The notes beneath the pieces are model-generated. The model searched no databases, was not told the origin of the DNA, and worked only from the letters and a program-made list of their open reading frames with translations. Positions 5,996 through 60,687 of a DNA stretch of 61,230 nt are shown piece after piece. Each line of letters opens with the position of its first letter. Within the stretch, counting starts at the first letter, position 1. The DNA comes from a virus. The stretch lies in the IMG/VR virus record IMGVR_UViG_3300028025_002039, positions 1 to 61,230 of that record; one strand, written 5' to 3'. The position numbers and the translations under genes are program-made.

Positions 5996-6700
5996 ATGCC
6001 TACACAAATATACGAAATTTCAGAAGTTGAACTTATCGACGGAACAATCATAGAAATATCACCACTAAAAATTAAGTATCTCAAGCAATTCATGGAAAAG
6101 TTTGAGTCGGTAAAGCAAGCAAAAAACGACGAAGAATCAATCTCAACACTAGTAGAGTGCATAAGAATAGCAATGAAGCAATACCTACCTTCAATTAAGA
6201 CAATAGAAGATGTTGAGGATAACGTTGACCTACCAACAATATATAAGATTATTGAATTGTGTGCAGGTATCAGAATTAACCAGTCTGAAGAAACAGAGAA
6301 AAAGCCAATATCCCCACAGCCACCATCCGAAAACACTTGGGAAAAGTTAGACTTGGCAAAACTAGAATCTGAGTTGTTTGTTTTGGGGTCTTGGAAAAAC
6401 TTTGACGACCTAGAGTCAAATATATCAATGCCAGAACTAATGGCTATCCTTGAATCAACTAGGGAATTGGATTACAGTGAAAAGAAGTTTATGGCTGCAA
6501 TGCAGGGTGTAGACCTAGACGAACAAACTGGAAAGAAAGAGGAAGACCCTTGGGAAGCCATGAAAGCCAGGGTTGCATCCCAAGTTTCTGGTATTGGTAA
6601 TGGAGACCCTAACGACATTACATCTCTACAAGGACAGAAAGCACAGCAGTACGGATTCGGTATCGGCATGGGTCTTGACTACGAAGTTGTTTCAAAATAA
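5996..6700 (+). CDS. Tail assembly chaperone, long form (G+T-like)
   Basis: This 234-residue protein has two parts. Residues 1-97 are homologous by eye to the whole of the next gene (shared VELxDGT, PLKI, FMxKFE, LxECxxIAxKQY and DLPTxYKI). Residues ~98-234 are an acidic extension containing PELMAILESTRE and a Gly-rich end. In most siphophages the short and long tail chaperones come from one gene by -1 frameshifting. Here the long form is a separate gene. It has no ribosome binding site and probably a leaderless mRNA. Chaperones bind the tape measure during tail assembly; the tape measure gene lies just downstream. Confidence 0.7.
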   Translation: MPTQIYEISEVELIDGTIIEISPLKIKYLKQFMEKFESVKQAKNDEESISTLVECIRIAMKQYLPSIKTIEDVEDNVDLPTIYKIIELCAGIRINQSEETEKKPISPQPPSENTWEKLDLAKLESELFVLGSWKNFDDLESNISMPELMAILESTRELDYSEKKFMAAMQGVDLDEQTGKKEEDPWEAMKARVASQVSGIGNGDPNDITSLQGQKAQQYGFGIGMGLDYEVVSK

Positions 6701-6743: not shown

Positions 6744-7070
6744 ATGTCTACAACTATTAACGAGACAAAAACTGTAGAACTACTAGACGGAACTAAGATT
6801 CCAGTTCGTCCACTAAAAATCTCTCTTCTTCGCCCTTTTATGACAAAGTTTGAGGGTATTGCAGAAGTAGCAGATAACAACGAGAAGTCTATGACTCTTC
6901 TCATGGAGTGTGTCCAGATTGCTCTAAAGCAGTACGCTCCAGACCTAGCAACAGACCTGAAGGCACTAGAAGAACTTCTAGACCTTCCGACCGTATACAA
7001 GATTGTCGAAGAGGCATCTGGTATCAAACTCAGCGAAGCCTCGCTAATGGGTGGTCTAATTAACGGCTAA
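6744..7070 (+). CDS. Tail assembly chaperone, short form (G-like)
   Basis: This 108-residue paralogue matches the N-terminal ~97 residues of the preceding gene and lacks its extension. It has an AAGGAGG ribosome binding site and its own promoter. Only 18 bp separate its stop from the tape measure start, so a frameshift extension like that of lambda GT has no room, and I see no X-XXY-YYZ slippery heptamer near its end. Two separate genes therefore seem to supply the short and long chaperones, at levels set by different promoters and start sites. Confidence 0.7.
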   Translation: MSTTINETKTVELLDGTKIPVRPLKISLLRPFMTKFEGIAEVADNNEKSMTLLMECVQIALKQYAPDLATDLKALEELLDLPTVYKIVEEASGIKLSEASLMGGLING

Positions 7071-7088: not shown

Positions 7089-10000
7089 ATGGCTGATATC
7101 GAAACCAATGTAAATATAAATATAGATACGTCAGATGCTCTGTCGCAACTAAAACTTTTACAACAGCAGATATCAGCCTTTCAGCAAGCAATGAAGAATG
7201 CTGGTGCAGCCAACGCTCAAGCAGCAGCCCAGATGCAATCAAACCTAGTAAATTCAATTAATGCTACTGGGAAATTTAGAGCAAATATACAAACAATTAA
7301 AACAACTGCCGAATCTTTTACAGAATCGCTTGAAAAAAACAAGATGTCTATTGGCGAATACTTTCGCTACGCAGGTGGGGCATCCAAGACTTTTGGTAAG
7401 TTGTTCAAGTCTGAGTTTGAAACAATCAATCAGGTTGCTCGTGAACGAGTAAAGGAACTACAGACACAATACATTAAACTTGGTAGAGATGCCAACGGTG
7501 CAATGAAAGCAATTTCTGTAAGACCGCTATCTCTTGACATGGAAAGTCTGGCAGTAAAAACCCAACTGGCAGCACAAAGACAGCAACTGTTTAACCAGTT
7601 GATGAAACAGGGTTCAACTCAACTTCTAAACTTCGGTAAGAATACACAATGGGCTGGTCGTCAGTTGATGGTTGGTTTTACCATTCCACTTACCCTTATG
7701 GGTTCTGCTGCTGCCAAAGCATACATGGAAATTGAAAAGGCTTCCATTTCCTTCAAGCGTGTTTATGGTGACATCAACACAACAGCAGGTGAAACCGAAA
7801 AGATGGTTAAGCAGGTTCAGGCTCTTGCCAGCGAATTTACCAAGTATGGTCTAGCAGTTGCAGATACTATGGACATGGCAGCCAAGGCTGCTGCTATGGG
7901 TAAGACTGGGGTAGACCTACTAGCACAGATTGACCAAGCAGCAAAACTATCTGTATTGGGTAACGTAGACCAGGCACAAGCCCTAGAAACAACCATCTCT
8001 CTAACAAATGCTTTTAGAGTCTCTACAGATGAACTAGCATCAAGCGTAGACTTCTTGAACGCAGTAGAAAACCAAACCGTAGTTAGCATTGAAGACCTTA
8101 CGATTGCTATTCCAAAAGCAGCCCCAGTTGTTCAGCAACTTGGTGGAGACGTAAAGGACCTAACGTTCTTCCTTACAGCAATGAAGGAAGGTGGCATTAA
8201 CGCATCGGAAGGTGCTAACGCTCTAAAGTCTGGTCTTGCGTCTATGATTAACCCAACTAAAAAGGCTTCCGACTTCCTCGCAACATTTGGAGTTAACATC
8301 CAAGCAATTGTTGAGGGCAACAAGGGCGACATCAAGCAAACAGTTATTGACTTCGCTAGAGCACTTGATACCCTTGACCCACTAAACCGTGCTCGTGCAA
8401 TTGAGCAGATGTTTGGTAAGTTCCAGTTCTCACGTCTATCAACATTGTTCCAAAACGTTATTGCCGAGGGTAGCCAAGCAACCAAGGTAGCAGGACTAGC
8501 AAACCAGACAGCAGAAGAACTAGCAGTGCTATCCGAACGAGAATTGAAAAAAGTCTCTGACTCACCAATGTTTAAGTTCCAGAAGTCTATCGAACAGATG
8601 CAAGCAAAACTTGCACCAGTTGGTGAAGCCTTCCTAAAGGCTGTTACTCCAATTATCGAATTCGTTACAAAGATTCTAGATGGATTTAATAACCTTAGTA
8701 GCGGAACCAAAAGTTTTATAACCATTCTTGTAACCGCTGTTGCAGGTATTGGTCCAATCTTGCTAATGACCTTTGGTCTTATTGCTAACGGTGTAGCCAA
8801 CGTAATGAAGTTGTTTACCAACATGAAGTCTTTCATTAATAAAACAACTAAGCCTTCAGACATGCTAGGTGAACAAACTGAATACATGAACACTGAGCAA
8901 CTTAAGGCAGCAGCAGTAGCAGCATCTCTTGACCAAGCACACGCAAAACTAAAGCAAACTTTCGATGCTGAAAGAGGTGCAATTGAACAACTAACTCAGG
9001 CATATCGTAACGCTGTCAACGCACAACAAGCCTTTACTGGTGTTCCTGGAGTTCCTGTAGGCGACGCTAATGCTATGACACCAAAGAAGTATGCCAAGGG
9101 TGTCTCTATGGTTCCTGGTCCAAAGGGTGCAGGAGACATTGTTCCAGCCCTACTATCCCCAGGTGAAGCAGTTATTCCTGCAAAACATGCACAGAAGTAT
9201 GCACCAGTAATTGCTGGTATGGTTGCTGGAAACCTTCCAGGATTTGAGAACGGAACCACTGGCGTAGGAATGCGTCAAAGCGTTTACGGACCAATGACGC
9301 TAAAGCAGACAGAAGGTCTTGCAAGAACTGGTGTCCAACTAAAAGACATTAGCGAGGAGGTTATGGCTGGTCCATATGCAAACGTCCCACCAACTGATTT
9401 CGGTACACAGATTTCTCCAACATCTGGTCACTCATTCCCTGCATTTGAAGTAGGTGGAATTTACCAGAAGCCAGACGGCACAAAGGTATTTGTTAAGCCA
9501 CAGATTGACCTAACTGGTGCAATGGCTGAAGTTCGTGGTACGGAGATTGCTCGCAGTGTTCATGGTCTAGTTGCTCCTAAGCAAGAAATCCGTGTAATGA
9601 TGGACCCAACAGACCCAGAGCGAAAGCGTAGATTCCTTGTTCTTGAATCAGCACTTGATGAAAGAATTGCAAACGTTCCAACTAAGTTTAGCAACAATGA
9701 GTACTTTACACAATTGGTTGCTTCACTTCTTCGTGGAGACAAAGACCTTGGTATTGGAAACCTAGGAGGCAATATCCTAGCCGATGTTGGTCCTGCTGGT
9801 GTGTTTGGCAGGGCATCTGGAAAACGTGCTCTGGGTAGTGCTGTTAACTCTATGGAAGAACAAGCCATCATTAACCTTCTTGGTGTAAAGGGTGGTGCTA
9901 AGAGATTCTTTGCAGAAGCAACTGCTGAACAAATTTCTAAGATGACTCCTGGAGAATACAATGCAGCAATGCAAGCAGAAATGCAAAGAGTTGCTCCTAA

Positions 10001-13000
10001 ACTTCAAGCAACAATTGCTGGTTTTGGAAACATGTCTCCAGAAGAACAGGCTGCTTATCAAGCAATGCAGCAACGACTCCAGACAGGTATGACTGTTGAC
10101 TGGAGCAGGTATCAGATTATGCACTCTGCTGTAAAGCCAAAAGAATACAAAAAGGGTGTAATCTCTGCTGGGTTTGCAAGTCCTAAAAACCCAATGGCAT
10201 TTGCTCAATCATTGCAAGCAATGAGCAATGAAGAAATTAAAAAGCAACTTCGTGTTCAGGATACTCACCTAGTAACAGCACTAGATATTAAAGACCCTAA
10301 ATTTTTGGCACAGGTTCAAAGAGTTTATCCTGGTGCTACAAAAGAAGAACTAGAACTATTTGAGCCAGTATCTAACCTAACTGCTCAACTTCCAGGAAAT
10401 GCAAACCAAGTTATGAAGGGAAAGAGTGGATATCCTGGTTCATTCTTTAGAACAGTTTGGGACGGACTTGAAAACAAGTTGTCAAAAACTGCTCAGATTG
10501 CTGGAGTATCGTTAAATGAATCACAGACAATAGAAAATGAAATTGGAAGTGTTATTGGTAGTTATCCAGAACTTATAAATGACACAACCATGGGCGACAT
10601 TATCGGACAGGTTCTTGGCTCTACAGCAAAAGTAACAGACGACGCAATGATGAAACGAAGAATGTGGGAGTTGTCAGAACGAGTTGCTGGTCTTCGTAGC
10701 AAACCTAAAAAGGCAAATCTAAAGCCAGGCGGTCTCGGTGGCGACGACGATGAAGGTGACGCTGGAACTACAGACATTATTCGTAAAATGTTGCAGGACG
10801 ATGCTTTGTATTGGGACAAGACAACCCTTAGAAGGAAACTTGCTTCAGGTGCGGAGGGACCACGTTTTGGTGGGGTAAACATTGACCAGTTCGGACACTC
10901 CTCTGGAAGTATTGAGGACATAGCAGCAAGAAGATTGGCACAGCAAACGCTACAAGAACTTATAGCAAATCCTAACATGCCTATGCCAAGACTTCCTAGA
11001 GCCTTCAGTCTTCCTGATAACTGGGACAAGACAAGTGCTGGTATGTCAGATGAACAGCAAATTGCACAACTAATATCAATGGCAAAGCAGGGTGCGGTCA
11101 AGGTATTAAATAATAATGACAATAACTTGGCAAAGAGAAAGCCAGGAAAACCTGCACCACTTTCATTTACAAAGCGTGATGCAGACGACAAGACATTTAA
11201 TATTGGCAAAGAAGCAAGCGGACAGGCTTACAACTCCTCAAGACTTAAGGGTTCTCCACTAAACTGGGCAGCAAATCAAACTAACGTCTTAGAGGCATAC
11301 AACGCAATGTCTCAACCATTTGAATCCTTCCAGCCAATCATTCCTCCAACAGCATCAGGTCTTAAATTCTTCAACGACCTAGCCCTAAAGATGGAAGAGG
11401 GTGGAATTGTTCCTGGTGCTAAGGCAAAGCCAAAGGCATCTGTATTCGACATTGACGACACACTGCTTGACCTATCATCTTTCATGGAGACCCACAAAGC
11501 AGAAAACGAAAAACTTCCAGAGGGTCAGAAGAAAAAGTGGTATAAGGAAGTTGCCAAAGACCCGAAGGGTATTCCAGCAGGTCTTGCTGCACTAAAGGCT
11601 GCTCAACTTCGTGGCAATAAGATTCTTCTTATGACTGCTCGTCCAGACTTCTACGAGCCATACACAATTGAGACCCTGCAAAAACTTGGTATCGATATGA
11701 ACGGTATTAAACTCATTGCAAGAAGAGATAAAGACTACCGTAAACCAGAGCAGATGAAATATGACAAAACTGCTGCGTTTATGAAGTACTATGATATTGA
11801 AGAGTTCTATGACGATATGCCTAAGACTCGTGGTGCAATTGGTCTACTTGGTATTCCAGCGTATGACCCTCTAAAACTTTCTAATGGCGTATTCTCAGTA
11901 CCAGGACCAAAGGGTGCTGGCGATGTTGTCCCTGCAATGCTTTCTCCAGGTGAGGCTGTAATCCCTGCTAAGTCAGCAGCAAAGAACCGCCCACTCATTC
12001 AGCAAATGATTTCTGGAAATGTTCCAGGATACGAGATTGGAAAGAATGACCCTGCTCCAGGAGAATCGCTTCCTAAGATTCCAGGTGTTTCAGGACCAAT
12101 TCCAGGTGTCACAGCACCACTACCAATAGTTCAGCAGGACGCAGGGAAAACAGAGAAATTCCTTGACGGAATTAAGAATGCTGTAAAGGAAGGTGCTAAA
12201 AAAGCAGTTTCTGTTATTGGAGAAAAAACTAAAGAAGCAGCCGAAACAGCACTAATTCCTTTTGTAAGATATTTAACTAATGATGAAGTTACTCTTACAG
12301 ACGAAAAGGGTAATACAAGATTTAATGCAGATACAAAAGAAACTCTTGACAAAGATGGTAACGTTGTTGCAAAACAGGTAGACCTTGAAAAACAAAAAGC
12401 AGACCTACTTGAAGAACAAAGAATTAGGGTTGAAGAAGAACTAGAGGCAACTGACCAAGAGTATGTAACTGAAAGAAGAAAAGTCGAACAACTTGAAATT
12501 AGATTGGCAAAGAATGAAGTCCTAAACGCCGAAGAACTTGCACAACTAGAAAATTCAAAAAGAATTCTTGAAGAAAAGAGAAATCTTGTTCGCAAAGAAA
12601 TGGGTTTTGAAAACGAAAAAGCCGCTAAAGAAAAGTCTGGCTTCTTTACTAGAACAAAGGGTACTGGAAATATTCAGGCAGCAGCCTATGGTTTAACCAC
12701 TGCCATGACTATGCTTTCAACAATTCCTGGTCAAATTGGAGAGACTGCACAAAAAGCACTTTTGCCACTTGGTTCATTCACAACTGCAATGTCTATTATT
12801 CCAGGTAAGGCTGGTATTCTGGTTGGTGTGTTTGCTGCCATGATAACTGCAGGAATTCAAATAAATGACCACCTAGTTAAGACAAGTCAAGAGAGTGCCA
12901 GACTTGCAAAAGCCATGGGTGCAGGAACCGAAGCAATTGGAAAGTTTGCTGAGTTTGCAAAAACTGTAAGCGGTACAGAGGCAATGAACAAGCAGCGTGA

Positions 13001-16000
13001 GCAAAGTGCTGGACAGTTCTTTAATGTTGTAGAAGGAAAAACAACATTCGGTGAATCTTACATGAAGTCCGATGCTGGTAAGCAACTTGTTAAAGATGTA
13101 AATGATTCAATTAAGCAAGGTGGCACAGGTGGTCTAGATGATGCAAAAACACTAATCACTAACCAACTCACTACTGCAATTGCAGCAGGAGTTATGACAC
13201 CAGGACAGGCTAGAAGTATTGCTGCAAATCTTGGTGCAGAGATGAAAGACATGCAGTTCGGTCTTGAGGTATCTGGAAGAATTACAGACCTAGTTGGACC
13301 AAAGGGGGAAGACCTCAAGAATGAGCCACTGCTTGTAAGAATGAGACTTGTTGAAGAAGCAGGTTCTCAATTTGAAAAGCAAGCAGGAGTTGCTAACAGC
13401 AAGGTTAACGCTGGAACTACCACAGGTGCAATTGCTGGCGGTGTTGGCACAGGCGTTGTTGCTGGTGGTGCAACATTACTAGGAGCAACAGCCATATCAG
13501 GTGCAGTTGCGTCAAGTGCCGCCCTTATGTCAACAGCAGTTGGTGCAACCATTGCATCTGGACCTTTTGCTCCTGTAACAGCAGCCATCGCAGCCATTAC
13601 CGTTGCAACAGTAATGATTGTAAACTACCAAACAGAAGTGGCAAAACAATCTGGTATCCTACAGGCTAACTTGGGCAACGTTCTTTCTGTCCAGCAACAA
13701 ATGGTTGACTCCTTAGAAATTGACTATCAAAAGAGAATTGCATCCGCAAAGGCTGCAGGAGATATTGCTGAAGCAACTAGATTGCAAAATCAATACCTAG
13801 AAGACCAAGCAAAACTTCTAGAGGTAAATGCAAAACAAACAGCAGAGATGTACGACATTCTTGACAAGCAGGGAACTGGTTTTGCAGGTATTGGAGATAT
13901 GCAAACAGCACTTGGAAATACAGCAAACGATGCAATCAAGAAGGCATTCGAAGGTACAGGTCAAGAGGTAGGTGCTCAACTAGCAACAGACACTATTAAT
14001 GCTATGTCAGCAAGCACTAACCAAAAGACAATGCTAAAGACTGCAGTTGCTCAAAAACTAATTGGCTTTGACCAAATTGGAACCGCTTCTGAAGTGTTTG
14101 GAAAAGACCAGGCAGGGGCAGACCAACTACAAAAACTTATAGAGCAAAGCCCAACAGAGGCAGGTAGAGCCTTGGGCTTGGCAACAAACCTTAAGGGCGA
14201 CCAGAAGAAACAGTTCCTCGTCGACATGAGCCTAAAGGACCCAATTGCTACAAAGCAAATGAACGATGCTCTTGAAATGGCTCAAAAGACTACTGGTGTA
14301 TTCTTTGGTCAGAAACAGGTTGCCGAAGCGGTAATGAAGTTTGCTGTAGAAAACCCAGAGCAGATGCTTCAGTTCAAGGCAAACATTGATGCACTAAAAG
14401 ACCAAAAGACAATTACTCTTGCAGTAGTTCAAAAAATTATGGGTCCAAGCATTTCTAAACTTCTTGGCGACAAAGGCGTTGCTAAATTCTTTACCAAGTA
14501 CAACAAAGAAAACAAGATTGTATTCTTGACAGAACTGCAACAGATTATGGCTATGAAGGGTGACCCAGAAATGATTGCCTCTTGGAACCTTTGGAACAAA
14601 GAGAATGGTCAGACAAAGAGTTTTGCTGAGTACGCTGCGTATCAGGCAGATAGAACTGTTACTACTCAGGGTGTAGACAATACTTTTGGTGCAGGTGAAA
14701 AGAAAGATTCTGGTGCTGGCAGTGGTCCACAAGCGTCTATCCTAGACCAGTTTGTTCAGATGGCTAGAGAGGGTTCTAACTTCCAGCAAAAACTAACTGT
14801 TGGATGGGACGCTTCTTACAAGGCTCTAAAGAACTACACAACAAAATCAATTAGCCTTATGGCTGGTTGGGCGGTACGTCTAAAACAGCAGGGTGTAGAT
14901 GCTAACATTATCGACATCTTTATGGGTGCTACTGAAGAAGAGCAAAACAAAATTCTAGATAAGAGAACTGGTAAGTTAAAGGCTGGTGCTTTTAAACTTC
15001 TAGAAGACATAAAGAAGATTAAGGACATGCGTGAATTTGGTCTTACTTATGTTCTTGCAAGTGACACAGAGAGAATGGCTAAAGACAATGAACTTTTCCA
15101 GGCTGGTCTTGACGTTATTGCTGGTAAAGAAAAGAAGATTAATGACAGATACGACAAGAGAATCAAGGCTCTTGATGAAATTGGAAAACTGCAAGAAAGA
15201 AACAACCAGCAACAGCAGGATACACTAACTATTGCAGACGCACTCTCTAAGGGTGACATTGCTGGTGCTGCTAGAGCGGCTCAAAAAGCAAGAGAAAATA
15301 TGCAAAGACAGGCTTTGGAAAATGCCAAGGCAAGTGTTGAAAAAGCACGTCAAGATGAACTAGCAGCAATCACTGTAAAGATTCTTGGCGAAAGCAAGAC
15401 AAGGGCACAAATAGAAGCAGATATGGTAGTCAATACTGAAAAGATTGCTGCAGCGAAACTTCTAGAAATGAACCGTCAAATTACAATTGGAAAGAATGCT
15501 GTTATTGCAGCAGACGCTGCTGCTAGACAACTTAAAAACAATAAGTTGATAAACCAACTTCCTGGATTTAATGGCTCTAGCAGTGGCAACGGAGGCAACG
15601 ACGGCGGAAAAGATGGCGGAAAGGATGGCAAAGATGATGGCAAAGATGGGGGCAAGGATGGCGGTTCAAAAACAAGTTCTGGTCTAAAAGGTGCAGTTCT
15701 TTCTTCATCTATGAGTGCTAGTGGTCAGAAGGCACAGATGGCTAAGGTTGACGCTGTTATTGCACAAAAGAATGATGGAACTGGTGCTGCAAAAGAAGCA
15801 TCACAGGCGTACTTTACTGCAAAGGCTAAGGCTGGACCAGAAATGAGTAACGCTGAAGCAGCAAAGAAATTTGGCGGAACAAACACACAAAAGTTTAAAG
15901 ACTGGCAAGCAAATCAAACAGCACTTGCAGCGGCACTCACAAAGGCAGAGAGTTTTGGAATTGTTTCGGGCGGCAAGGTTAAGACATCAGCAGACATCGA

Positions 16001-16913
16001 TGCTTTGACAGACAAACAAAAAAGAGGTATAACCAACTCTGCAGGAAATCAGGCAGTTGTAACTGAACTAATGAAACAGATTCCAGCAGAAATTGCAGAT
16101 AGGGCTGCAGTACTTAAAAATGCTGCAAAGAAATTTAAAAAAGACCAAACTGAACTAGATGGTTTAAAGACTTCACTTAAGACTGCAATGGGCAAGGTTT
16201 CTGGTGCATCAATGTCTACTCTTGCAGCAGATTATCAAAAATGGTTAAATAGTTCAGATGCCGCAAGACCATCTACAACTTTTGGAAAAATTATTGCTGC
16301 TGGCGGAGACCCAGAAGCATTTATGAAAAAGGCAACTGGAATTGCCAGATACTTTGTCACTGTAGACAAATACAGAAACGAACTAAGGGCTGGTGGCTAC
16401 ACCGACTCAAAACTTTATCAGGCAGGTCTTTTTGACTATAACTATGGAGACGATGGACAGACCACCAAACAGACTTCAGACTTTGCAACTGGTCAAATGT
16501 TTGTTGAGCGTGGTCCTTTTAAAGGTGGAACAATTGGATACGCTGCAAAAAACATTGTTCCAGATGGCGAAAACATAACTAGATTTAGTAATAAATACTA
16601 CGCTATGGGTGGAATGGTTTATGCAAACAGGGGTCTTGAGATTGCTGCAAGCAAGTATGCACTAGGAACAGACACTATTCCTGCTATGCTTACACCAGGC
16701 GAATTTGTTATGCAAAAGTCTGCGGTAGACTCAATTGGTGCAGACAGGCTTACCTCTATGAATAACGGAACATCAATGGGCGAATCCGTGTATAATTATA
16801 GTATTACAGTAAACGCTACAGGAAACGGTCTGGATGCCAATGACCTTGCTAGACAAGTCATGGAACAGATTAAACGAGTAGACTCACAAAGAATTAGGAG
16901 CAATAATTACTAA
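7089..16913 (+). CDS. Tape measure protein with embedded HAD-like and possible kinase-like domains
   Basis: At 3274 residues this is by far the largest gene. It sets tail length and lines the tube. The N-terminus is helical. Hydrophobic segments lie near residues ~190-210, ~545-570, ~1900-1925 and ~2110-2180. The proline-glycine module PGPKGAGDxVPAxLSPGEA occurs at residues ~675 and ~1604, with a diverged copy near 3195. Between the first two copies are enzyme-like segments. Residues ~785-905 have a kinase-like pattern (GGIYQKPDGTKVFVKP with K803, then GDKDLGIGNLGGNILADVG with D884, N895, D899). Residues ~1447-1590 look like a HAD phosphatase (FDIDDT, D1454/D1456; MTARPD; DDMPKT, D1575/D1576). 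A Gly/Asp/Lys repeat lies at ~2835-2860. The stop overlaps the next ATG. Confidence 0.85.
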   Translation: MADIETNVNINIDTSDALSQLKLLQQQISAFQQAMKNAGAANAQAAAQMQSNLVNSINATGKFRANIQTIKTTAESFTESLEKNKMSIGEYFRYAGGASKTFGKLFKSEFETINQVARERVKELQTQYIKLGRDANGAMKAISVRPLSLDMESLAVKTQLAAQRQQLFNQLMKQGSTQLLNFGKNTQWAGRQLMVGFTIPLTLMGSAAAKAYMEIEKASISFKRVYGDINTTAGETEKMVKQVQALASEFTKYGLAVADTMDMAAKAAAMGKTGVDLLAQIDQAAKLSVLGNVDQAQALETTISLTNAFRVSTDELASSVDFLNAVENQTVVSIEDLTIAIPKAAPVVQQLGGDVKDLTFFLTAMKEGGINASEGANALKSGLASMINPTKKASDFLATFGVNIQAIVEGNKGDIKQTVIDFARALDTLDPLNRARAIEQMFGKFQFSRLSTLFQNVIAEGSQATKVAGLANQTAEELAVLSERELKKVSDSPMFKFQKSIEQMQAKLAPVGEAFLKAVTPIIEFVTKILDGFNNLSSGTKSFITILVTAVAGIGPILLMTFGLIANGVANVMKLFTNMKSFINKTTKPSDMLGEQTEYMNTEQLKAAAVAASLDQAHAKLKQTFDAERGAIEQLTQAYRNAVNAQQAFTGVPGVPVGDANAMTPKKYAKGVSMVPGPKGAGDIVPALLSPGEAVIPAKHAQKYAPVIAGMVAGNLPGFENGTTGVGMRQSVYGPMTLKQTEGLARTGVQLKDISEEVMAGPYANVPPTDFGTQISPTSGHSFPAFEVGGIYQKPDGTKVFVKPQIDLTGAMAEVRGTEIARSVHGLVAPKQEIRVMMDPTDPERKRRFLVLESALDERIANVPTKFSNNEYFTQLVASLLRGDKDLGIGNLGGNILADVGPAGVFGRASGKRALGSAVNSMEEQAIINLLGVKGGAKRFFAEATAEQISKMTPGEYNAAMQAEMQRVAPKLQATIAGFGNMSPEEQAAYQAMQQRLQTGMTVDWSRYQIMHSAVKPKEYKKGVISAGFASPKNPMAFAQSLQAMSNEEIKKQLRVQDTHLVTALDIKDPKFLAQVQRVYPGATKEELELFEPVSNLTAQLPGNANQVMKGKSGYPGSFFRTVWDGLENKLSKTAQIAGVSLNESQTIENEIGSVIGSYPELINDTTMGDIIGQVLGSTAKVTDDAMMKRRMWELSERVAGLRSKPKKANLKPGGLGGDDDEGDAGTTDIIRKMLQDDALYWDKTTLRRKLASGAEGPRFGGVNIDQFGHSSGSIEDIAARRLAQQTLQELIANPNMPMPRLPRAFSLPDNWDKTSAGMSDEQQIAQLISMAKQGAVKVLNNNDNNLAKRKPGKPAPLSFTKRDADDKTFNIGKEASGQAYNSSRLKGSPLNWAANQTNVLEAYNAMSQPFESFQPIIPPTASGLKFFNDLALKMEEGGIVPGAKAKPKASVFDIDDTLLDLSSFMETHKAENEKLPEGQKKKWYKEVAKDPKGIPAGLAALKAAQLRGNKILLMTARPDFYEPYTIETLQKLGIDMNGIKLIARRDKDYRKPEQMKYDKTAAFMKYYDIEEFYDDMPKTRGAIGLLGIPAYDPLKLSNGVFSVPGPKGAGDVVPAMLSPGEAVIPAKSAAKNRPLIQQMISGNVPGYEIGKNDPAPGESLPKIPGVSGPIPGVTAPLPIVQQDAGKTEKFLDGIKNAVKEGAKKAVSVIGEKTKEAAETALIPFVRYLTNDEVTLTDEKGNTRFNADTKETLDKDGNVVAKQVDLEKQKADLLEEQRIRVEEELEATDQEYVTERRKVEQLEIRLAKNEVLNAEELAQLENSKRILEEKRNLVRKEMGFENEKAAKEKSGFFTRTKGTGNIQAAAYGLTTAMTMLSTIPGQIGETAQKALLPLGSFTTAMSIIPGKAGILVGVFAAMITAGIQINDHLVKTSQESARLAKAMGAGTEAIGKFAEFAKTVSGTEAMNKQREQSAGQFFNVVEGKTTFGESYMKSDAGKQLVKDVNDSIKQGGTGGLDDAKTLITNQLTTAIAAGVMTPGQARSIAANLGAEMKDMQFGLEVSGRITDLVGPKGEDLKNEPLLVRMRLVEEAGSQFEKQAGVANSKVNAGTTTGAIAGGVGTGVVAGGATLLGATAISGAVASSAALMSTAVGATIASGPFAPVTAAIAAITVATVMIVNYQTEVAKQSGILQANLGNVLSVQQQMVDSLEIDYQKRIASAKAAGDIAEATRLQNQYLEDQAKLLEVNAKQTAEMYDILDKQGTGFAGIGDMQTALGNTANDAIKKAFEGTGQEVGAQLATDTINAMSASTNQKTMLKTAVAQKLIGFDQIGTASEVFGKDQAGADQLQKLIEQSPTEAGRALGLATNLKGDQKKQFLVDMSLKDPIATKQMNDALEMAQKTTGVFFGQKQVAEAVMKFAVENPEQMLQFKANIDALKDQKTITLAVVQKIMGPSISKLLGDKGVAKFFTKYNKENKIVFLTELQQIMAMKGDPEMIASWNLWNKENGQTKSFAEYAAYQADRTVTTQGVDNTFGAGEKKDSGAGSGPQASILDQFVQMAREGSNFQQKLTVGWDASYKALKNYTTKSISLMAGWAVRLKQQGVDANIIDIFMGATEEEQNKILDKRTGKLKAGAFKLLEDIKKIKDMREFGLTYVLASDTERMAKDNELFQAGLDVIAGKEKKINDRYDKRIKALDEIGKLQERNNQQQQDTLTIADALSKGDIAGAARAAQKARENMQRQALENAKASVEKARQDELAAITVKILGESKTRAQIEADMVVNTEKIAAAKLLEMNRQITIGKNAVIAADAAARQLKNNKLINQLPGFNGSSSGNGGNDGGKDGGKDGKDDGKDGGKDGGSKTSSGLKGAVLSSSMSASGQKAQMAKVDAVIAQKNDGTGAAKEASQAYFTAKAKAGPEMSNAEAAKKFGGTNTQKFKDWQANQTALAAALTKAESFGIVSGGKVKTSADIDALTDKQKRGITNSAGNQAVVTELMKQIPAEIADRAAVLKNAAKKFKKDQTELDGLKTSLKTAMGKVSGASMSTLAADYQKWLNSSDAARPSTTFGKIIAAGGDPEAFMKKATGIARYFVTVDKYRNELRAGGYTDSKLYQAGLFDYNYGDDGQTTKQTSDFATGQMFVERGPFKGGTIGYAAKNIVPDGENITRFSNKYYAMGGMVYANRGLEIAASKYALGTDTIPAMLTPGEFVMQKSAVDSIGADRLTSMNNGTSMGESVYNYSITVNATGNGLDANDLARQVMEQIKRVDSQRIRSNNY

Positions 16914-42515: not shown

Positions 42516-42588
42516 TCCCCTATAACTCAGTTGGTAGAGTGTTCGGCTGTTAACCGAAATGTCATTGGTTCGAGTCCAGTTGGGGGAG
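42516..42588 (+). tRNA. tRNA-Asn (anticodon GTT)
   Basis: 73 nt. Full 7-bp acceptor stem (TCCCCTA with TGGGGGA), D arm ACTC/GAGT, anticodon stem TTCGG/CCGAA with loop CTGTTAA, T loop TTCGAGT. CCA is not encoded in full (GCA follows). Confidence 0.93.
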
Positions 42589-42689
42589 CACACACCAAGC
42601 GGTATGCGAAAGCATAGTTGGCTTTAACAGGATACTAGTAAAGACTGTTACAGATGTTGTCCCTATCTGGGTTTTGACAAGGGACATTT
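42589..42689 (+). other. Structured spacer between tRNA genes
   Basis: This 101-bp gap has no gene. It contains a hairpin TATGC-GAAA-GCATA (42603-42616) with a GNRA-type loop, a short inverted pair AACAG/CTGTT around 42626-42650, and arms TGTCCCT (42658-42664) and AGGGACA (42680-42686). It is probably part of the tRNA precursor. No T-arm or acceptor stem is present, so it is not an intact tRNA. Confidence 0.45.
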
Positions 42690-42763
42690 GATTTCGTAGT
42701 TCAGTTGGTTAGAACGCTACCCTGTCACGGTAGAGGTCGTGGGTTCAAGTCCCATCGGAATCG
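42690..42763 (+). tRNA. tRNA-Asp (anticodon GTC)
   Basis: 74 nt. Acceptor stem GATTTCG/CGGAATC (one G-T pair), D stem GTTC/GAAC, anticodon stem CTACC/GGTAG with loop CTGTCAC, T stem GTGGG/CCCAT. No encoded CCA. Confidence 0.92.
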
Positions 42764-42767
42764 CTTC

Positions 42768-42839
42768 GCCACCTTAACTCAGCGGTAGAGTGCCATACTT
42801 GTAATATGGAGGTCAACAGTTCGAATCTGTTAGGTGGCT
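42768..42839 (+). tRNA. tRNA-Thr (anticodon TGT)
   Basis: 72 nt. Acceptor stem GCCACCT/AGGTGGC, D stem ACTC/GAGT, anticodon stem CCATA/TATGG with loop CTTGTAA, T stem AACAG/CTGTT. Only 4 bp separate it from tRNA-Asp. Confidence 0.93.
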
Positions 42840-42853
42840 CTGATTATGCTTTA

Positions 42854-51576: not shown

Positions 51577-51649
51577 CCCCTCGTAACTCAGTGGATAGAG
51601 TAGGAGCCTTCTAATCTCTTAGTCGCTGGTTCGATTCCAGCCGAGGGGA
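51577..51649 (+). tRNA. tRNA-Arg (anticodon TCT)
   Basis: 73 nt. Acceptor stem CCCCTCG/CGAGGGG, D stem ACTC/GAGT, anticodon loop CTTCTAA, T stem GCTGG/CCAGC. One C-T mismatch at the base of the anticodon loop (31-39). No encoded CCA. It reads AGA, a frequent codon in this window. Confidence 0.9.
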
Positions 51650-51658
51650 CAGATAAGG

Positions 51659-60585: not shown

Positions 60586-60615
60586 TAGGCAATATTTTTT
60601 TGGGCAAAAATTTGG

Positions 60616-60687
60616 CACTCCCAGAGAGAATCGAACTCTCGCCACCAGGATGAAAACCTGGCGTTCTAACCACTAAACTATGGGAGC
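60616..60687 (-). tRNA. tRNA-Glu (anticodon TTC), CCA encoded
   Basis: 72 nt on the minus strand. Acceptor stem GCTCCCA/TGGGAGT (first pair G-T), D stem GTTT/GAAC, anticodon stem CCAGG/CCTGG with loop TTTTCAT, T stem GAGAG/CTCTC. CCA is encoded at 60615-60613. It differs from the plus-strand tRNAs, which lack CCA. Confidence 0.92.

What the first reader, a model, noticed from the sequence alone, without database searches (positions are those of the whole stretch)
9111..12055. Enzyme-like cassette inside the tape measure protein, flanked by a repeated module
Residues ~675 and ~1604 carry near-identical PGPKGAGDxVPAxLSPGEA modules. Between them lie a HAD-phosphatase-like domain (FDIDDT, MTARPD, DDMPKT) and, earlier, a kinase-like segment (K803; D884, N895, D899). 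Tape measures are normally coiled coils with at most cell-wall hydrolases. A phosphotransferase-plus-phosphatase cargo inside a protein that enters the host with the DNA could be an injected effector that edits host signalling or nucleotides at the start of infection.
Basis: partly seen in the sequence, partly recalled or inferred. Interest (0 to 1): 0.88.

Follow-up and report, generated by a model that had tools for sequence, protein, structure and literature searches.

The report
Enzyme cargo inside phage tail ruler
The protein that sets this phage's tail length carries, between two copies of one short motif, an apparently intact kinase-fold enzyme and a T4-type phosphatase; about 418 matches in uncultured-virus sequences carry the same kinase, which suggests that these phages deliver ready-made enzymes with their DNA.

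Summary
The 3,274-residue tape measure protein (TMP, 7089-16913) has two copies of a ~52-residue PGPKGAGD module (aa 670-722, 1600-1651). Between them lie a kinase-like domain (760-1015), a variable middle region and a HAD phosphatase (1447-1600). The HAD is solid: Pfam 4e-16, PHROG 4e-15, AlphaFold/Foldseek match to the T4 Pnkp 3'-phosphatase, motifs intact. The kinase call is good but not airtight. Sequence libraries find nothing, but the AlphaFold model (pLDDT 88) matches mostly kinases (CtkA, LepB, MAP kinases; best E 5e-3) and phage virion proteins, one named PI3/4-kinase, at E<=3e-4. A survey of relatives supports a cargo slot. Every kinase copy I could place lies in this TMP family (418 IMG/VR matches). 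It is present in 32 of 54 TMPs sampled by N-terminus. Cassettes range from kinase alone (~300 aa) to ~1,900 aa with further domains. HAD occurs only in a kinase-bearing subset. Best reading: modular enzyme cargo carried in the tail and delivered with the DNA. Precedents: TMP-fused RNA polymerase of P23-45 and 'polyvalent' injected proteins. Delivery, activity and substrates are inferred.

The parts
7089..16913 (+). tape measure protein ORF, 3,274 aa, one uninterrupted frame
   Evidence: Pfam PF10145 7.8e-26; PHROG 10030 tape measure 1.7e-97
8706..8804 (+). hydrophobic (membrane-segment-like) stretch, aa 540-572, upstream of the cassette
   Evidence: Kyte-Doolittle window 19, maximum 2.19
9096..9254 (+). 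module copy 1, aa 670-722 (GVSMVPGPKGAGDIVPALLSPGEAVIPAK...GNLPGFENG)
   Evidence: profile of 97 module copies in relatives
9366..10133 (+). kinase-fold domain, aa 760-1015; K803, E814, D884, D886, N891, D899, G901 invariant
   Evidence: AlphaFold pLDDT 87.9, pTM 0.86 on aa 722-1020; Foldseek; conservation in 88 aligned sequences
10146..11423 (+). variable middle region, aa 1020-1445; its conserved core (QDTHL...FEPVSNLTA...NQ) is near aa 1057-1153, nt about 10257-10547; function unassigned
   Evidence: no Pfam/PHROG family; folded in the model with pLDDT about 80-94; core found in 24 distinct ORF stretches of relatives, with and without kinase
11427..11888 (+). HAD phosphatase domain, aa 1447-1600, T4-Pnkp 3'-phosphatase / class C acid phosphatase type; motifs D1454-x-D1456-x-T1458, T1516-A-R, R1551/K1557, D1575-D1576
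   Evidence: Pfam PF03767 3.9e-16; PHROG 415 3.7e-15; PDB profile hits Pnkp1, lipoprotein e(P4); Foldseek 5uj0, 2ia5, 1ltq, 4xrp, 2i33
11886..12041 (+). module copy 2, aa 1600-1651 (GVFSVPGPKGAGDVVPAMLSPGEAVIPAK...GNVPGYEIG)
12786..12866 (+). hydrophobic stretch, aa 1900-1926, downstream of the cassette
13455..13631 (+). hydrophobic stretches, aa 2123-2181
16665..16740 (+). C-terminal module-like element (GTDTIPAMLTPGEFVMQKSAV, from aa 3193)
   Evidence: sequence; weak module-profile matches at the same place in relatives

Best explanation
Residues ~670-1650 of the tape measure protein are an optional, modular enzyme cargo, bracketed by two copies of a TMP-specific module and placed between two hydrophobic clusters of the ruler. 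In this phage the cargo is an atypical kinase-fold enzyme (HipA/CtkA/PI3-4-kinase-like in general shape) and a T4-Pnkp-type HAD phosphatase, separated by a folded region of unknown function. I infer that the TMP, packed in the tail tube, is ejected ahead of or with the DNA and inserts in the membrane, and that the cargo then reaches the cytoplasm. There the kinase would modify a host protein or other target and the HAD would remove phosphate, most likely from nucleic-acid or nucleotide ends, before any phage gene is expressed. Shown here: one polypeptide, two modules, the HAD fold and motifs, invariance of kinase-type catalytic residues, presence/absence variation, purifying selection. Inferred: kinase chemistry, presence in the virion, delivery, targets.
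For: HAD. Kinase: AlphaFold pLDDT 87.9/pTM 0.86. The top 50 PDB Foldseek matches are nearly all kinases or kinase-fold effectors, led by LepB N-terminal fragment (prob 0.92) and CtkA (prob 0.94). Seven BFVD matches at E<=3.2e-4, prob 0.99-1.00, are large phage proteins including one named PI3/4-kinase, a portal fusion and an 'ADP-ribosyltransferase'. K803/E814/D886/N891/D899 are invariant in 88 sequences. In a profile comparison HHTV-1 gp13 ranks first of 153 ORFs and aligns its K, E and NRD...N motif to this domain. Cargo: in four TMPs the kinase alone lies between the modules (cassette 300-303 aa). Cassettes run 300-1,903 aa. Of 54 distinct TMPs sampled by N-terminus, 32 have the kinase and 22 lack it; median length 2,984 against 2,350 aa. 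Distant TMPs of Streptomyces phages have neither module nor cassette. Median dN/dS about 0.12 for both domains. Precedents: TMP-fused virion RNA polymerase of P23-45 (PMC10770324); TMP found at the inner membrane with host injection proteins (PMC13190303).
Against: No sequence-library match for the kinase domain, no PDB Foldseek match below E=1e-3 and low global TM-scores (0.2-0.35). The lumen of a tail tube is about 4 nm wide (PMC9022992), so a ~30-kDa folded domain may have to travel unfolded or sit near the tail end. No proteomic or biochemical data. In 22 of 54 TMPs the kinase is dispensable. The phosphatase could be a structural relic, although all its motifs are conserved.
Confidence: 0.58

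Rival explanations
1. The cassette works in tail assembly or in the envelope, not in the cytoplasm: for example it modifies tail proteins or chaperones during assembly, or acts on envelope phosphates (class C acid phosphatase-like) while the TMP crosses the wall.
For: It lies between hydrophobic stretches. Class C acid phosphatases, which are cell-surface lipoproteins such as e(P4), are among the best HAD matches. TMPs are thought to be injected into the cell envelope (PMC10770324).
Against: A kinase needs ATP, which is cytoplasmic. Pnkp-type relatives act on nucleic acids inside the cell. If assembly needed it, 22 of 54 related TMPs would not lack the kinase.
Confidence: 0.2
2. Kinase fold, other chemistry: the domain is a catalytically repurposed kinase-like enzyme (AMPylation as in SelO, glutamylation as in SidJ) or a lipid kinase as reported for LepB, still delivered as cargo.
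For: The best PDB match is the LepB N-terminal fragment and SidJ is also listed. The sequence is far from every curated kinase family. The Asp-rich loop LRxDKDLxxGN is unusual.
Against: The Lys/Glu/Asp/Asn/Asp set is the canonical phosphotransfer set and is invariant.
Confidence: 0.3
3. RNA-repair kit: the cargo mainly counters host nucleases that cut tRNA or RNA at infection. The HAD removes 3'-phosphates as in T4 Pnkp, and the phage also carries its own tRNA genes.
For: T4 Pnkp and bacterial Pnkp1 match in profile and fold. PHROG 415/505 are 'polynucleotide kinase'. Five tRNA genes in the window.
Against: The kinase is not the P-loop 5'-kinase of Pnkp. No RNA ligase among the 31 ORF proteins scanned with PHROGs. 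The HAD is missing from most kinase-bearing TMPs.
Confidence: 0.2
4. Ordinary recombination debris: domains inserted into a tolerant linker with no function.
For: Mosaic, variable middle region; kinase similarity is only weakly correlated with N-terminal TMP similarity (rho 0.17).
Against: dN/dS about 0.12, invariant catalytic residues at down to 38-40% identity, hundreds of independent contigs.
Confidence: 0.05

Closest known systems
TMP-fused virion RNA polymerase of Thermus phage P23-45 (PMC10770324)
   Same: An enzyme unrelated to tail structure is part of the tape measure polypeptide and is proposed to act at the start of infection.
   Different: RNA polymerase at the N-terminus, not kinase/phosphatase; no flanking duplicated modules or interchangeable cassette described in the parts I read.
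Polyvalent proteins (Iyer et al. 2017, PMC5512222)
   Same: Giant multidomain phage proteins with effector enzymes, including kinases, thought to be delivered with the DNA.
   Different: The term 'tape measure' does not occur in that paper. Its kinase group lacks the C-terminal subdomain and has a Gln in the last N-lobe strand; here a C-terminal helical part is present and the equivalent strand carries an invariant Glu (E853).
T4 Pnkp 3'-phosphatase / Pnkp1 / class C acid phosphatases (HAD)
   Same: Fold and all catalytic motifs, significant profile matches.
   Different: Embedded in a tape measure; no P-loop kinase partner; substrate unknown.
HipA/CtkA-like, LepB and PI3/4-kinase-like atypical kinases
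   Same: Predicted fold; Lys-Pro strand (VFVKP), helix Glu, D-x4-N loop, later Asp-x-Gly.
   Different: No detectable sequence homology to curated families; fold matches to solved structures are weak; located in a tail protein.
Kinase-like domains in head-module proteins (HHTV-1 gp13, HSTV-2 gp16)
   Same: Predicted similar fold; gp13 aligns motif by motif; genes lie next to head genes.
   Different: Near head/MuF-type genes, not in the TMP; homology weak (gp13 E 0.0011 for a single comparison; gp16 not significant).

Membership tests
Tape measure protein | TMP sequence profile and gene position between tail chaperone-like genes and tail-tip genes | tested here: met
   PF10145, PHROG 10030; neighbouring major-tail-like and minor tail proteins
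HAD superfamily, T4-Pnkp 3'-phosphatase type | motif I DxDxT, motif II T, motif IV DD, conserved R/K between them | tested here: met
   invariant in the distinct HAD copies; DxD, TAR, R-x-RK and DD align with a phage 'polynucleotide kinase'
HAD superfamily, T4-Pnkp 3'-phosphatase type | Rossmann-like HAD fold | tested here: met
   Foldseek 5uj0 2.4e-5, TM 0.69-0.72 by target length
HAD superfamily, T4-Pnkp 3'-phosphatase type | 3'-phosphatase activity on nucleic acid | not testable with these tools
   needs enzymology
Protein-kinase-like fold (HipA/CtkA/PI3-4K clan) | beta3 Lys, helix-C Glu, catalytic Asp/Asn, Mg-binding Asp | tested here: met
   K803, E814, D886, N891, D899 invariant in 88 sequences; the role of each residue is assigned by analogy
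Protein-kinase-like fold (HipA/CtkA/PI3-4K clan) | three-dimensional fold | tested here: inconclusive
   model good; matches nearly all kinases but best PDB E 5e-3; viral library E down to 5e-5
Protein-kinase-like fold (HipA/CtkA/PI3-4K clan) | match to a curated sequence family (Pfam/PHROG) | tested here: not met
   no relevant hit for any of 42 members
Protein-kinase-like fold (HipA/CtkA/PI3-4K clan) | phosphotransfer activity | not testable with these tools
   -
Polyvalent-protein kinase group of Iyer et al. | loss of C-terminal subdomain; conserved Gln in last N-lobe strand | tested here: not met
   several helices follow the catalytic loop in the model; invariant Glu853 in that strand
TMP-fused virion enzyme (P23-45 type) | enzyme domain in the same polypeptide as the TMP | tested here: met
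   single ORF 7089-16913
TMP-fused virion enzyme (P23-45 type) | present in virions and active early in infection | not testable with these tools
   -

The most novel reading that the evidence does not exclude
A large group of uncultured siphophages uses a standard docking slot in the tape measure protein, defined by duplicated PGPKGAGD modules and GG-x-x-PGY linkers, as an exchangeable magazine of injected enzymes. The kinase-fold enzyme is the common warhead, and HAD phosphatase, GNAT-like and other unassigned domains are loaded in different combinations to fit the host.
Probability: 0.35. Interest if true: 0.88.

Novelty: new variant of a known kind. Interest (0 to 1): 0.74.

Why it matters
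How siphophages act on a host before their first transcript is largely unknown, and the tape measure is the one virion protein known to reach the inner membrane in front of the DNA. A conserved, apparently active enzyme inside it, with presence and absence among close relatives, gives a clean test of whether tape measures deliver effectors in general. It also names a kinase-fold family, with 418 matches in IMG/VR, that Pfam and PHROGs do not recognise and that has no BLAST-level match in the isolate phages searched.

Tried and rejected
Pfam, PHROGs and PDB sequence searches for the kinase segment gave nothing of value (the PDB hits are helical or designed proteins). tblastn of the kinase in 50,697 phage records: none. 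The scan of bacterial and archaeal genomes found none, so no prophage or host homologue was found. Considered and dropped: intein or self-removing insert (no such domain matched). Recent duplication of the module: DNA identity only 67-73%. P-loop polynucleotide kinase partner for the HAD: no such domain. For domain A4 in relatives I suspected an ADP-ribosyltransferase by eye, but Pfam and PDB searches do not support it, so it is left unassigned. HSTV-2 gp16 is kinase-like by Pfam (PF00454 1.5e-5, just under its cut-off) but not significantly related to this domain by profile comparison. Eleven TMP stretches without the kinase domain or beside it that I scanned with Pfam mostly had no match.
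Full report
What is there. The ORF at 7089-16913 encodes a 3,274-residue tape measure protein (Pfam PF10145 7.8e-26; PHROG 10030 1.7e-97) in an ordinary siphophage late region: head maturation protease, head proteins, Ig-domain tail protein and a chaperone-like gene upstream, minor tail proteins downstream. The record is an IMG/VR virus contig of 61,230 bases. The module PGPKGAGDxVPAxLSPGEAVIPAK occurs at aa 676 and 1605 and nowhere else in the record. The copies differ in a third of their bases, so they are held as protein.

The HAD domain (aa 1447-1600). Pfam PF03767 at 3.9e-16, PHROG 415 at 3.7e-15, PDB profile matches to Pnkp1 and class C acid phosphatases. A Foldseek search with the AlphaFold model of aa 1020-1655 gave 36 matches under 1e-3, led by a plant vegetative storage protein (HAD), the T4 Pnkp 3'-phosphatase, T4 Pnkp, Pnkp1 and class C acid phosphatases. 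Motifs D1454-x-D1456-x-T, T1516-A-R, the R-x-x-D-Y-R-K-P segment and D1575-D1576 are conserved in all distinct copies and align with a phage 'polynucleotide kinase' protein, which shares DxD, TAR, R-D-x-D-x-R-K and DD.

The kinase-like domain (aa 760-1015). No curated family recognises it, even when 42 relatives are scanned. The AlphaFold model is confident (pLDDT 87.9, pTM 0.86), with N-lobe strands, a helix carrying E814, a strand carrying K803 (VFVKP), a loop with D884-K-D886-x4-N891, D899-V-G901, and C-terminal helices. Foldseek against the PDB gives no match under 1e-3, but the list is almost all kinases, headed by the LepB N-terminal fragment and H. pylori CtkA. Against viral predicted structures seven matches reach 3.2e-4 or better with probability 0.99-1.00, including a phage protein named PI3/4-kinase, a portal-protein fusion and HHTV-1 gp13. 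By profile comparison gp13 ranks first of 153 ORFs from two haloviruses and aligns K, E and the N-R-D-I-H-G-G-N loop with K803, E814 and D884-K-D-L-G-I-G-N891. The margin over the second ORF is small (35.5 against 29.9), so this is supporting evidence only. I rate a kinase-type fold at about 0.85 and protein or lipid phosphotransfer at about 0.6.

Survey of relatives. Scans of IMG/VR found 418 loci encoding the kinase domain, of which the best 80 were fetched. Across all scans 87 distinct copies were retrieved. 86 of them are in ORFs where the N-terminal TMP profile also matches; the other ORF is cut off at the contig start. The domain is never an ORF of its own. Among 54 distinct TMPs drawn by N-terminal similarity, 32 carry the kinase and 22 do not. 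Complete ORFs have median length 2,984 against 2,350 aa. In four TMPs the kinase alone fills the space between two modules (cassette 300-303 aa). In others the cassette reaches 1,903 aa, with extra domains separated by GG-x-x-PGY-x-x-G linkers, and sometimes three modules. In another group the kinase starts about 1,000 residues in, after an additional segment. HAD is found in 17 contigs, all in kinase-bearing TMPs of this group. Other inserts include a GNAT-like domain (PF00583, E 1.3e-3, just below the Pfam cut-off) and several unassigned domains. Nearest isolate TMPs (Streptomyces phages Muntaha and Mildred21, ~29% identity over the N-terminus) are 2,088-2,104 aa and have neither modules nor cassette. 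Median dN/dS is about 0.12 for kinase and HAD, close to the TMP N-terminus (0.10). Kinase and N-terminal similarities are only weakly correlated (rho 0.17), as expected if cassettes are exchanged, though the pairs are not independent.

How it most likely works. The cassette lies between hydrophobic stretches at aa 540-572 and 1900-1926/2123-2181, so membrane insertion of the TMP could present it as a loop; on which side is unknown. Published work holds that siphophage TMPs are injected into the envelope and help the DNA cross (PMC10770324). For lambda, proximity labelling places the TMP at the inner membrane beside ManYZ during injection (PMC13190303). In P23-45 the TMP carries the virion RNA polymerase that transcribes the pre-early genes (PMC10770324). 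By analogy the cassette is delivered enzyme cargo. The step from 'in the TMP' to 'active in the cytoplasm' is inference. The ~4-nm tail lumen (PMC9022992) means the domains may travel unfolded. The kinase probably modifies a host protein; the HAD probably removes phosphate from nucleic acid or nucleotides. Because the HAD is found with the kinase but most kinase copies lack it, the two need not act on one substrate.

Comparison and novelty. This is not the kinase group of the polyvalent-protein survey, whose defining features were tested and not met (for the definition; for the test). It works like a polyvalent protein placed in the tail. My literature searches found no description of a kinase or phosphatase inside a tape measure, but the library lacks most subscription journals. 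Verdict: real, well conserved, a new variant of TMP-fused virion enzymes.

Noticed in passing
L042 aa 1362-1471 and L041 aa 1362-1471 (L042:4880-6514 stretch): GNAT acetyltransferase-like domain in the cassette of a relative that also carries kinase and HAD (PF00583 1.3e-3, below its cut-off).
   Followed up: partly
L017 (two copies), L006, L039, L042, L062, L093, L094: Unassigned ~150-residue domain (GPGxYF...KGYI...FIQxLxxxGYxGY..NW) in TMPs with and without the kinase; ADP-ribosyltransferase-like by eye only, no library match.
   Followed up: partly
L036/L133 TMP aa 1687-2620: A 156-residue domain (NANKKVFTSSRLKSFKFEDW...) in three near-identical copies within one TMP, with three PGPKGAGD modules.
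   Followed up: no
window 10257-10547 and relatives: Conserved middle core (QDTHL...SNLTA...NQ...KLSK) found in TMP cassettes both with and without kinase; possibly a TMP-specific binding domain.
   Followed up: partly
L204 (HHTV-1) 9436-12738; L203 (HSTV-2) 10647-12119: Haloarchaeal virus head-module proteins, annotated hypothetical, with kinase-like motifs (NRDIHGGN...VDNG; GVFKP...DDRHYGNIL...IDSGG).
   Followed up: partly
window 42516-42840, 51577-51650, 60613-60687: Five tRNA genes (Asn, Asp, Thr, Arg, Glu) in the phage.
   Followed up: no
window 5996-6700 and 6744-7070: Two adjacent related genes just before the TMP (similar N-terminal halves), probably the paired tail assembly chaperones.
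   Followed up: no
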